Of a stretch of DNA of 64,000 nt, positions 19,686-53,677 are shown in pieces. Made by a program: the position numbers and the translations under genes. Under the pieces are notes generated by a model, which was not told the DNA's origin, did not search any database, and saw nothing but the letters and a program-made list of their open reading frames with translations. Each line of letters begins with the position of its first letter. Position 1 is the first letter of the stretch. The stretch covers positions 2,604,001 through 2,668,000 of the forward strand of contig NZ_AP019309.1 in NCBI RefSeq assembly GCF_003925875.1, written 5' to 3'. This stretch comes from Intestinibaculum porci (GTDB lineage: Bacteria > Bacillota_I > Bacilli_A > Erysipelotrichales > Coprobacillaceae).

Positions 19686-20229
19686 AGCCCGTTCTATTCG
19701 TCGCTTTACTAAGGAGCCTGTCAGCGATGAAGCGCTGAAAACGATCCTAGAAAACTGTCGCATCGCCTCTTGCGGACGCAATGCCCAAACCTTAACTTAT
19801 GTCGTCGTCAAATCACCAGAGAAAGTGTCAGCTATGCATCATTTACTCAAATGGGCGGCAGCTTTGCCCGATGGCAAAGGTACCCCTGCCGATGATCAGT
19901 ACCCGCCGCTTTATCTTGTCATCATCCAGCATCAAAAAGGCGGCCTCACTGATATCGATGCCGGGATCGCGGCCAATACAATTATGACTAGTGCCACTGA
20001 TTTAGGCCTTGCCAGCTGTATCTTTGCGTCGCATAATCCCGTCAAAGTCAGCGAACTTCTTACCTTAAAAGAAGAGGAAAATCCTCGCTTAGTCATCGCC
20101 TTAGGACATCCAGCTTGTGAAAGTACAATTGTCGATATGCAAGACAATAATATCAACTACACCATGGATGATAATGCACATTTCTATGTCCCAAAACGGG
20201 CTTTAAAAGATATTGTGGAAATCAAATAG
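19660..20229 (+). CDS. Nitroreductase-family protein
   Basis: 189 aa FMN-dependent oxidoreductase. The N-terminal RKARSIRRFTKEPVSDE and NCRIASCGRNAQTL are the FMN phosphate-binding region of the family. DAGIAANTIMTSATDLGLASC is the usual middle motif. Cytoplasmic; natural substrate unknown. It overlaps the transporter gene by 26 nt. Its own terminator appears to have been pushed about 1.6 kb away by the IscB element inserted just after its stop codon. Confidence 0.9.
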   Translation: MNLNALYRKARSIRRFTKEPVSDEALKTILENCRIASCGRNAQTLTYVVVKSPEKVSAMHHLLKWAAALPDGKGTPADDQYPPLYLVIIQHQKGGLTDIDAGIAANTIMTSATDLGLASCIFASHNPVKVSELLTLKEEENPRLVIALGHPACESTIVDMQDNNINYTMDDNAHFYVPKRALKDIVEIK

Positions 20230-20235
20230 GACTAA

Positions 20236-20545
20236 TTGTTAAGCAATCAAAAACATAGAAATATGTACGTAAACATAGACAGGAGTGGACACATTAAGTC
20301 TCTTGTCTATGGCTTAACAATAGGTTTCGAGCCTAAGTGACTGCTGCTATCGAAAGATATGCTGCAGATATGAACTACATTAAGCAGTAAGGTAAAGACA
20401 CACCTTTAGATGTAATCTTCAGTCTGAAGCTCTGTGAGTGCAAACCAAGAAACAATGCTAATGTCCTGCATTGATAACAGGGAAACACATGTCCTCTACT
20501 CGATATTGGCACGAAGAGAAATACTCCGAAAGGAAGGGGTCAGAA
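20236..20545 (+). ncRNA. IscB omega RNA (HEARO-type RNA)
   Basis: The noncoding ~310 nt upstream of iscB is densely paired. ATTGTTAAGC (20235-20244) pairs with GCTTAACAAT (20312-20321). CATAGACAGGAG (20274-20285) pairs with CTCTTGTCTATG (20300-20311). Further helices are ACTGCT/AGCAGT (20340-20345 with 20383-20388), TATC/GATA around a GAAA tetraloop (20348-20359), AAGGT/ACCTT (20389-20406) and CTTCA/TGAAG (20417-20429). The 3' part contains an ACAGGGAAACACA stretch before the ORF. Position and structure match the known omega RNA that guides IscB. The guide should be the DNA just 5' of the scaffold, about 20218-20235. Confidence 0.82.
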
Positions 20546-21787
20546 ATGACAACTTATGCTTTTGTATTGGATGCTAATAATAAACAATTAGCGCCAACCA
20601 AAGAACAAAAGGCTTGGTTTCTTATTCGTAAGAAACGAGCAACATTGCTCAGCAGATATCCAATGGTGATACAACTTAAAAAGAAAATTCCAGATCAAGA
20701 AATCTGCAAAGATGAAATTCGTTGTGGAATAGATGACGGCGGTCTTCATGTTGGTGTCGCATTAGTACAGAAATGTCAGACGCGAAACAAAGTCATTTTT
20801 AAAGGAACTATTGAACAGCGTAATGATGTAAAACATCTTATGGACGTTAGACGTGGATTTAGGCGTTATCACCGTGATCACAAAAGATATAGACCAGTGA
20901 GATTTAACAACAGAAAATCCTCTAAACGAAAAGAGAGAATTGCACCAAGTATTTTACAAAAACGTCAAGCAACAATAAGGGTTATCAATCAACTTAACAA
21001 ATGGGTAAATATAACGAATTATTGGTTAGAAGATGTTGCTATTGATATAAGAGCATTGACAGATGGCTATAAACCATATCGGTGGCAATATCAAAAATCA
21101 AATAGACTGGACGAGAATATCCGTAAAGCTGTCATTTTACGAGACGGCTGCAAATGTATGGAATGTGGAAAATCTAATTGTAGATTAGAGGTTCATCACA
21201 TTAAGCCAAGAAGACTGAAAGGTTCAAATACGCTTGGTAATCTTATTACGTTATGTACAGGATGTCACCAGAAAACAGAAGGTGTAGAAGAATTATATAT
21301 GAACAGATACTTCGCTTTGTTAAATTCTTCTGACAATAAGAACCTGAATTATGCACAGCATGTAATGATAGGTAAAAAATGGCTGAGAAAACAGTTATCA
21401 AAGTTAGGAATGTTACATTTAACCAACGGAGGTGATACAGCCAATAAGCGTATTGACTGGGGTATTGCAAAATCACATTCTAATGATGCCATATGTATCA
21501 CAGACCTGCGACCAGACACATGTGAAATTAAAGAATGGGTAATAAAACCTATGCGAAGACAAAGTAAGGCTAAGACAGATAATGTTCTTGGAATTAAACA
21601 TAGCGATTTGGTTGAGTACACTTTTATGAACGGTGAAACACATAGAGGGTATGTAACAGCTTTATATCCAGAACAAAACGCTCTTAATTTTCAAAGTCCA
21701 ACAAAACATTGCAAGAAAGTTAACGCAAGAAAATGCAAAGTGCTTTGGAAATATTCTAAGATTTATTGGTTAGATAATGTGAGTTAG
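20546..21787 (+). CDS. iscB: IscB RNA-guided nuclease (RuvC + HNH)
   Basis: 413 aa from the ATG at 20546, preceded by AGGAAGGGG; upstream in-frame starts lie inside the RNA. Domain order is that of IscB. A PLMP-like N-terminus (residues 1-45, KQLAP) is followed by RuvC-I with D63 in [15 protein letters not shown]. The arginine-rich bridge helix is [14 protein letters not shown] (102-115), and RuvC-II has E162 in [17 protein letters not shown] (about 192-245) has [12 protein letters not shown] and CTGCH. RuvC-III has H311 and D314 in [12 protein letters not shown]-terminal target-adjacent-motif-interacting region follows. All catalytic residues appear intact. It acts with the omega RNA just upstream to cut guide-matched dsDNA. 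Confidence 0.93.
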
Positions 21788-21830
21788 ACACATTTGTCTA
21801 TATTTAAACACAAATAATAATGATTTAATA

Positions 21831-21856
21831 AGGAGAAGCGCAACGCTTCTCCTTTT
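21831..21856 (+). terminator. Terminator hairpin, probably native to the nitroreductase gene
   Basis: AGGAGAAGCG/CGCTTCTCCT stem with a CAA loop followed by four T, interrupted at once by the MITE at 21857; more T continue on its far side (22098-22103). Without the two insertions this would sit between the convergent nitroreductase and EAL genes. Confidence 0.75.
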
Positions 21857-22097
21857 GAGTCTCTATAAATATGGGGTTTACTCTTAAGTTTTTTGAAGTA
21901 CCTGAAATGTAATTTACTCGAGATACATTAACAAAACCAAATTGCTCAGTTTATCAGATTCTTAAGAAAGACAAAAAAGATGAAAGCCCATTAAGTTGAC
22001 CACTTAGCTTTCATCTGTCCAATAAGAACAATATCGATATCATACAAAGTTCGAGAAAAAGCAAGCCCTTTTCTCATTCATAAATTGCCCGAGAGCC
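21857..22097. mobile_element. 241-bp MITE derived from an ISL3-family element
   Basis: The left end GAGTCTCTATAAATATGGGG matches the left end of the full ISL3 element at 49755. The next ~200 bp are homologous, including an identical stretch at about 21979-22033 that forms a GATGAAAGC/GCTTTCATC hairpin. The right end (minus strand GGCTCTCGGGCAATTTATG) matches the right end of the same element at 53221 at 15 of 19 positions. No ORF. Flanks are T-rich on both sides but do not form a clean 8-bp duplication. Confidence 0.8.
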
Positions 22098-49754: not shown

Positions 49755-49994
49755 GAGTCTCTATATTAATTTGGGGTTTTGGCTAGCTTTAAAAGTTTTT
49801 GGGGTTATGTTCTCAAAGACTTTTTTCTTTTACAGCTGCGGTTTATGTTTTTGGGGTGCCTGAAATTTGATATATTTGAGATATAGAACAGCATAATCAA
49901 ATTGCTCAGTTTATCAAATTCCTAAGAAAGGCAAAAAAAAGATGAAAGCCCATTAAGTTGACCACTTAGCTTTCATCTGTCCAATAAGAACAAT

Positions 49995-50435
49995 ATGAGT
50001 ATAATACAAAGACCTAAAAAAAGCAAACCTTTTCCTCCATCTGAATACATGAAAATAATCGCCAGACTTAATGTCCTAAAGCTTTTAGGAAAGCTATATA
50101 ACGACACCTTCACTGTGTTTGGATTCTACACAAGATATGTGAACATTGACGGAGAACCCGTTGAATACAGAATTATGCGCATCCGCTCTGGAAGAACCGG
50201 CAAGACACACGCTGTGCTCTTTGATTTTATGGTGCCGTATCATCAGATCTCTTCCGAAGATCTGAATGCAGTGATCAGTGGCGATACCGATGATCTTCCT
50301 TACAGCGAAGCATATATCCGATGGCTGACCAATGTCATCAGGCTTCACCGCATCACTGATTACGTTAGCGCATGTATGGCCTTCTGCAGAGGACACTTCA
50401 TTGATAAGTGCGAAACTCTGGTGGTTGCCGTCTGA
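49995..50435 (+). CDS. Element-associated ORF of unknown function
   Basis: 146 aa immediately after the left-end hairpin of the ISL3 element. RIMRIRSGRTGKTHAVLFDFMVPYHQIS (split near residues 60-87) resembles a domain often found with transposases (DUF6431-like), but the zinc-ribbon cysteines usual there are not visible. No strong SD. It precedes the transposase by 148 nt and is on the same strand. It probably assists transposition or is a remnant of a regulatory protein. Confidence 0.65.
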   Translation: MSIIQRPKKSKPFPPSEYMKIIARLNVLKLLGKLYNDTFTVFGFYTRYVNIDGEPVEYRIMRIRSGRTGKTHAVLFDFMVPYHQISSEDLNAVISGDTDDLPYSEAYIRWLTNVIRLHRITDYVSACMAFCRGHFIDKCETLVVAV

Positions 50436-53255: not shown

Positions 53256-53332
53256 TGGTCGGGAAGACAGGATTTGAACCTGCGACCCCCTGGTCCCAAA
53301 CCAGGTGCACTACCAAGCTGTGCTACTTCCCG
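53256..53332 (-). tRNA. tRNA-Pro(TGG)
   Basis: 77 nt with encoded CCA. Acceptor stem CGGGAAG/CTTCCCG, anticodon loop TTTGGGA (TGG), T-loop TTCAAAT. Last gene of the five-tRNA minus-strand operon. Confidence 0.95.
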
Positions 53333-53334
53333 AC

Positions 53335-53427
53335 TGGCGCAGCTTGAGGGATTCGAACCCCCGCGGGACTTGCATCCCCTGTCGGTTTTCAAGACCGATC
53401 CCTTCAGCCGGACTTGGGTAAAGCTGC
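53335..53427 (-). tRNA. tRNA-Ser(TGA)
   Basis: 93 nt with a long variable arm, encoded CCA, acceptor GCAGCTT/AAGCTGC, anticodon loop CTTGAAA (TGA). Confidence 0.95.
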
Positions 53428-53441
53428 GCGTAATATTGAAA

Positions 53442-53517
53442 TGGTGGTCTCAGCCGGAATCGAACCAGCGACACAAGGATTTTCAGTCCTTTGCTCTACC
53501 TACTGAGCTATGAGACC
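53442..53517 (-). tRNA. tRNA-Phe(GAA)
   Basis: 76 nt, encoded CCA, acceptor GGTCTCA/TGAGACC, anticodon loop CTGAAAA (GAA), T-loop TTCGATT. Confidence 0.95.
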
Positions 53518-53519
53518 AA

Positions 53520-53597
53520 TGGCGGTCTGAACGGGGCTCGAACCCGCGACCTCCGCCGTGACAGGGCGGCATTCTAAACCAACTGAACTACCAGACC
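53520..53597 (-). tRNA. tRNA-Asp(GTC)
   Basis: 78 nt, encoded CCA, acceptor GGTCTGG with one G-T pair, anticodon loop CTGTCAC (GTC), T-loop TTCGAGC. Confidence 0.95.
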
Positions 53598-53601
53598 ATT
53601 G

Positions 53602-53677
53602 TGGTGACGGATACGGGATTCGAACCCGTGAATGCATGCGTGAAAGGCATGTGAGTTAACCGTTTCTCCAATCCGCC
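53602..53677 (-). tRNA. tRNA-Glu(TTC)
   Basis: 76 nt, encoded CCA, acceptor GGCGGAT/ATCCGTC, anticodon loop CTTTCAC (TTC), T-loop TTCGAAT. First gene of the tRNA operon. Confidence 0.95.

What the first reader, a model, noticed from the sequence alone, without database searches (positions are those of the whole stretch)
20230..21830. Intact IscB locus with its omega RNA
All RuvC residues (D63, E162, H311, D314) and the HNH histidines and zinc cysteines appear intact, and the ~310 nt upstream form a multi-helix RNA with two stems of 10-12 bp that fit a HEARO/omega RNA. A compact RNA-guided nuclease of 413 aa from this lineage would be a new ortholog.
Basis: partly seen in the sequence, partly recalled or inferred. 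Interest (0 to 1): 0.8.

Follow-up and report, generated by a model that had tools for sequence, protein, structure and literature searches.

The report
IscB element inserting at ribosome-binding sites
The stretch is a complete 1.6-kb mobile element encoding an intact IscB RNA-guided DNA-cutting enzyme and its guide RNA, one of three copies in this bacterium, from a phage-rich branch whose copies nearly always land in the ribosome-binding site just ahead of a gene.

Summary
The observation and the identification are both right. Window 20546-21787 encodes an intact 413-aa IscB: NCBIfam guided_IscB 282 bits, named catalytic residues invariant in relatives, dN/dS 0.06-0.27. The 318 nt upstream are a genuine omega RNA: in 24 relatives 92% of base-pair cells pair and 50 of 75 pairs show two-sided changes, against 33-46% paired in slid controls. 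Rfam HEARO matches only below threshold (23 bits, cut-off 83). The protein is about 68% identical to HfmIscB, already solved.

No Y1 transposase lies nearby. The right end falls on GGAG (two variants in 30), and in 30 of 32 insertions this is the Shine-Dalgarno sequence of the next gene; the window copy is an exception. Canonical HEARO IscBs in the same genome sit on ATGA instead. I infer a G-rich TAM (NGGAG). Transposase, TAM and cleavage are untested.

The parts
20228..21835 (+). Whole IscB element (1608 bp), one of three copies in this genome
   Evidence: Alignment of the three genomic copies, 97-98% DNA identity inside, unrelated flanks outside
20204..20227 (+). Predicted guide (left flank, last 16-24 nt before the element; 3' end of the nitroreductase gene)
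   Evidence: Inference from omega RNA architecture; left flanks are variable between copies. Not tested by RNA sequencing
20228..20243 (+). Left end, RGGACT... conserved terminus
   Evidence: Conserved in 28 insertions, information low to its left
20235..20534 (+). Omega RNA scaffold, 13 covarying helices
   Evidence: 75 pairs, 92.2% of cells paired, 50 pairs with two-sided change in 24 sequences; HEARO-like at 20288-20524, 23.2 bits, below threshold
20235..20244 (+).
   Evidence: Perfect pairing in most relatives, compensatory changes
20312..20321 (+). 3' arm of that stem
20274..20311 (+). 12-bp stem (20274-20285 with 20300-20311)
   Evidence: helix 3, 75% of cells paired, 7 of 12 pairs with two-sided change
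20546..21787 (+). IscB gene, 413 aa
   Evidence: NCBIfam NF040563 281.7 bits; PDB HfmIscB 665 bits
20732..20734 (+). RuvC-I Asp63 codon
   Evidence: Invariant
21029..21031 (+). RuvC-II Glu162 codon
   Evidence: Invariant
21155..21274 (+). HNH domain (residues 204-243) with four zinc cysteines and His217/His218
   Evidence: Pfam HNH 38.9 bits; residues conserved
21476..21487 (+). RuvC-III His311 and Asp314 codons
   Evidence: Invariant
21831..21835 (+). AGGAG at the right end: target motif and predicted TAM, here shared with the 5' arm of a terminator-like hairpin of the flank
   Evidence: GGAG conserved at right ends; one AGGAG present in the empty phage site; sequence

Best explanation
A non-autonomous IscB (OMEGA) insertion element. 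Shown: intact nuclease gene, covarying omega RNA directly upstream, sharp ends, three copies at three unrelated sites in this genome, filled and empty sites in close phage relatives, and right ends that fall on GGAG, usually the Shine-Dalgarno sequence of the next gene. Inferred: the omega RNA carries 16-24 nt of left flank as guide; the right-flank GGAG is the TAM (NGGAG), and the element's own left end reads GGAC, which would spare the occupied site. A Y1 transposase acting in trans moves the element. When a site is restored by excision, or homologous DNA without the element is present, IscB cuts guide+GGAG and repair copies the element back in. Landing on a Shine-Dalgarno sequence while leaving GGAG at the right end keeps the downstream gene translatable, so insertion should be nearly neutral.
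For: IscB family membership and invariant residues; omega RNA covariation and sub-threshold HEARO similarity; purifying selection; unit and three sites; right end on GGAG in 30 of 30 aligned with two A-to-G/T variants and a start codon downstream in 30 of 32; empty phage sites CCTATAAAGGAGAAAAG and an uninterrupted orthologous site of copy B in relative G011; Y1 TnpAs present elsewhere in the genome.
Against: No Y1 TnpA near any member, none in the three phage genomes tested, and no TnpA locus of this genome with recognisably shared ends, so the mobilising enzyme is unknown. The window copy itself is not at a Shine-Dalgarno sequence. AGGAG precedes an ORF start in about half of all its occurrences anyway (51% in the window), so part of the pattern is motif plus selection. 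Five predicted empty junctions were not found in viral contigs. Guide, TAM and cleavage are unmeasured.
Confidence: 0.75

Rival explanations
1. The branch now spreads mainly as an RNA-guided homing element, like a phage homing endonuclease: IscB cuts the empty allele of a co-infecting phage or incoming DNA and repair copies the element in; transposition to new sites is rare or past.
For: Phage-rich distribution; filled and empty alleles in close Staphylococcus phages; in Silviavirus the usual right end is lost and the rebuilt start of the target gene keeps the same residues with a serine codon changed at all three bases (AGT to TCG), as expected of a cut-proof copy; no TnpA in those phages.
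Against: Three different sites with identical ends in this one genome need transposition, not homing. The recoded start could come from a related phage by recombination. No inheritance data.
Confidence: 0.2
2. The copy is a decaying relic with no remaining function.
For: A 93% identical relative in Sharpea has an internal TAA, so decay happens in this branch.
Against: All three copies here are open over 413 codons, dN/dS is 0.18-0.27 between them, and the RNA stem pairs perfectly.
Confidence: 0.06
3. The element has been taken over by the host as an RNA-guided regulator of neighbouring genes rather than a mobile nuclease.
For: Position at gene starts and restored ribosome-binding site.
Against: Both nuclease active sites are intact, whereas known regulator derivatives of related nucleases (TldR, from memory) have lost theirs; sites differ between copies.
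Confidence: 0.04

Closest known systems
HfmIscB (PDB 9k2z)
   Same: About 68% identity over 408 aa, same length and domain order
   Different: Its genomic context, omega RNA and TAM could not be compared here: no open paper on it was found
Canonical HEARO/IscB (Rfam RF02033; OgeuIscB, OrufIscB)
   Same: RNA upstream of a RuvC-HNH nuclease, same HEARO core motifs, element ends next to gene starts
   Different: About 30% protein identity to the canonical HEARO IscB of this genome; RNA far below Rfam threshold; right end on GGAG instead of ATGA; predicted TAM G-rich instead of NTAAA (PMC13180657) or NWRRNA (from memory)
IS200/IS605 insertion sequences
   Same: Short motif at one end as target, no clear target duplication
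   Different: No tnpA in the element or nearby
Phage homing endonucleases
   Same: Filled and empty alleles in close phages, recoded target in Silviavirus
   Different: RNA-guided, and present at several unrelated sites in one genome

Membership tests
IscB (OMEGA nuclease) | RuvC split by HNH with intact catalytic residues and IscB family score | tested here: met
   NF040563 281.7 bits vs 175; RRXRR and HNH; residues invariant
IscB (OMEGA nuclease) | Structured omega RNA directly upstream | tested here: met
IscB (OMEGA nuclease) | RNA-guided double-strand DNA cleavage with a TAM | not testable with these tools
   Needs a bench assay
Rfam HEARO RF02033 | Score at or above the gathering cut-off (83 bits) | tested here: not met
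   23.2 bits in the window, at most 38 bits among the relatives tested; hence a HEARO-like RNA, not filed as RF02033
IS200/IS605 element | Y1 transposase in the element or linked | tested here: not met
   None within about 3 kb of any member
IS200/IS605 element | Insertion next to a fixed short target motif | tested here: met
   GGAG at right ends, AGGAG in the empty phage site
IS200/IS605 element | Subterminal hairpins bound by TnpA | not tested
   Seen by eye only (e.g. near 21790-21806), no covariation test made
Homing endonuclease | Filled/empty alleles at a fixed site in close relatives | tested here: met
   JDF86 vs phiSA_BS1; VL10 and MRSA13 vs RP15 and Romulus
Homing endonuclease | Biased inheritance into empty alleles | not testable with these tools
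   Needs a mixed-infection experiment

The most novel reading that the evidence does not exclude
A branch of IscB elements uses the bacterial Shine-Dalgarno motif (GGAG) as both insertion target and TAM, so its natural targets are ribosome-binding sites across bacteria and phages, and in some staphylococcal phages it has become a natural RNA-guided homing element with a synonymously recoded, cut-proof copy of its target gene.
Probability: 0.5. Interest if true: 0.65.

Novelty: new variant of a known kind. Interest (0 to 1): 0.45.

Why it matters
The IscB TAMs I could check or recall are A/T-rich or mixed (NTAAA for OrufIscB, PMC13180657; NWRRNA for OgeuIscB, from memory). A 413-aa IscB with a G-rich GGAG TAM would widen what compact IscBs can target. 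Reading the TAM from the right ends of natural insertions is a cheap general method: in one genome it gives ATGA for the canonical HEARO family and GGAG for this branch. Start codons and ribosome-binding sites as targets would explain how these elements enter gene-dense genomes and phages with little damage.

Tried and rejected
Further solo left ends in the genome: only the three copies plus a chance match; right-end pattern: three exact copies, other hits with three mismatches near control level. Ends shared between the element and TnpA loci of this genome: no blastn hit. The first TnpA neighbourhood scan used wrongly oriented loci and was repeated with positive controls. Predicted empty junctions in viral contigs: five exact patterns, no hit. 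Empty site of the window copy in the sister genome G001: flanks not found there. Fusicatenibacter site: relatives hold only parts of the flanks. Plasmids: no relative at E 1e-60. Promoter scan: not above chance, so own promoter versus read-through is open. No structure prediction was run because a solved structure at about 68% identity exists. No open paper mentions HfmIscB. Searches for IscB with Shine-Dalgarno or with phage homing gave no paper describing this targeting, judged from titles and abstracts.

Full report
Check of the observation. The ORF at 20546-21787 encodes 413 aa. It matches Pfam RRXRR (E 7.6e-45) and HNH (E 9.8e-10), the NCBIfam model for RNA-guided IscB at 281.7 bits against a cut-off of 175, and the solved HfmIscB (PDB 9k2z) at 665 bits over residues 3-411, with TbaIscB, OgeuIscB and other IscBs further off. 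In an alignment with 17 relatives D63, E162, H311, D314, C204, C207, H218, C237 and C240 are invariant and H217 nearly so; the departure at 217 is the PDB chain, which has Ala there, probably an inactivated construct. dN/dS is 0.18-0.27 among the three genomic copies and 0.06 against the Fusicatenibacter relative L028, so the protein is or was recently under purifying selection.

The RNA. Rfam's HEARO model gives 23.2 bits (E 0.05, gathering 83) at 20288-20524, right place and strand; relatives give up to 38 bits, E 2.5e-4. I aligned the region from left end to start codon in 24 sequences. RNAalifold finds 48 pairs, 35 with compensatory changes. With the 5' stems added (75 pairs, 13 helices), 92.2% of cells form standard pairs, 50 pairs show two-sided changes and the covariation score is 0.423; slid controls give 33-46% and 0.06-0.09, and none of 500 shuffles reaches the observed values. 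The structure was partly derived from these sequences, which favours it over slid versions, but that alone does not produce two-sided changes of this extent.

The unit. The genome (3.2 Mb, one contig) holds three copies of this IscB at 97-100% protein identity, nine copies of a second IscB at about 31% identity, and two larger IscB-like genes. Comparing the three close copies gives a shared unit of 1608 bp, window 20228-21835, with unrelated flanks. No solo copy of the left end occurs. Relatives are in Sharpea, Fusicatenibacter, a Lachnospiraceae bacterium and Oceanirhabdus, in IMG/VR viral contigs and in Staphylococcus phages of the genera Baoshanvirus and Silviavirus. [quoted passage not shown]

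Target. Across the branch the left end reads (mostly A)GGACT and the columns left of it carry little information; the right end is conserved up to GGAG (G 30/30, G 30/30, A 28/30, G 30/30), after which information drops. In 30 of 32 insertions a start codon of an ORF of at least 40 aa follows 1-14 nt later, mostly 6-12. The loose baseline is 51% for AGGAG in the window and 44% in viral loci, so there is an excess (roughly 2e-7 by a binomial with independent sites, my own arithmetic), but selection against insertions inside genes contributes. The window copy is one of the two exceptions: its AGGAG is the beginning of a perfect hairpin arm (AGGAGAAGCG-CAA-CGCTTCTCCT, then TTT) directly at the nitroreductase stop codon TAG, which the insertion leaves unchanged (sequence).

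Empty sites. Phage phiSA_BS1 has CCTATAAAGGAGAAAAGACTATTATG where JDF86 has CCTATAAAGGA followed by the element (CTTACT...TTTTAAGAAGG) and then AGGAGAAAAGACTATTATG, so one AGGAG belongs to the target; whether the AGGA at the left end is part of the element or a 4-base duplication cannot be decided from this. The genes flanking genomic copy B are uninterrupted in G011, a relative of the same family, at 68% identity over 507 bp. In Silviavirus the resolvase start is ATGACAAATAGTAAAAAAAAAGGT in empty phages (RP15, Romulus). In VL10 and MRSA13 the left flank keeps that start, the usual right end is gone, and the resolvase start is rebuilt as ...CTGACAAATTCGAAGAAAAAAGGT (VL10), keeping the residues TNSKKKG but with a serine codon changed at all three bases. 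I read this as a target that no longer matches the guide; recombination with a related phage could also have produced it.

Contrast inside one genome. One member of the nine-copy second family, L017, scores 121.8 bits with HEARO. The right ends of all nine copies fall on ATGA followed by varied sequence; in those I read by eye this looks like the start of a gene (ATG AAA ...). ATGAAA fits the NWRRNA TAM that I recall for OgeuIscB, PMC13180657 gives NTAAA for OrufIscB, and I recall from the original HEARO description that such elements integrate at ATGA/GTGA. By the same logic the TAM of the present branch should be NGGAG. The element's own left end after the guide reads GGAC, so a TAM that reads the last G would spare the occupied site.

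Mobility. No Y1 TnpA occurs within about 3 kb of any member examined, with the genome's own TnpAs as positive controls, and none in the three phage genomes tested. The genome has nine Y1_Tnp matches, seven of them close to full length, but none of the loci shares detectable ends with the element. Mobilisation in trans is therefore an inference from the ends and from three unrelated sites.

Verdict. It is a member of the IscB family, in a branch with a solved representative and with a divergent omega RNA. What I found no description of is the GGAG/Shine-Dalgarno targeting of this branch beside ATGA targeting of canonical HEARO in the same genome, and the recoded target in Silviavirus; the held library lacks most subscription papers, so this is no proof of novelty. 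Cleavage, TAM, guide and transposase have not been measured here.

Noticed in passing
Genome G000, loci L012-L020: Nine copies of a canonical HEARO IscB element (about 1811 bp in the uninterrupted ones), right ends on ATGA; in L014, L016 and L019 the left part is displaced or interrupted.
   Followed up: partly
Genome G000, loci L021 and L022: Two larger IscB-like open frames (595 and 523 aa) with weak similarity to the window IscB.
   Followed up: no
window 21890-22073 and 49848-50034: A repeat of about 190 bp, 85% identical, with two further genomic copies (at 2016181 and 2918626); it contains an inverted repeat GATGAAAGC...GCTTTCATC. Nature unknown.
   Followed up: partly
L053 and L054 (Silviavirus VL10 and MRSA13): IscB element without its usual right end; downstream resolvase start rebuilt with a synonymous serine codon (AGT to TCG), as if to escape the guide.
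   Followed up: partly
L038 / L023 (Sharpea azabuensis): Close relative (93%) of the window IscB broken by an internal TAA.
   Followed up: no
L087 (= L041): A prophage copy whose omega RNA lacks about 70 nt of the otherwise conserved core while the protein is intact; it may depend on another copy's RNA.
   Followed up: no
window 53256-53677: Cluster of five tRNA genes on the minus strand (Glu, Asp, Phe, Ser, Pro).
   Followed up: no
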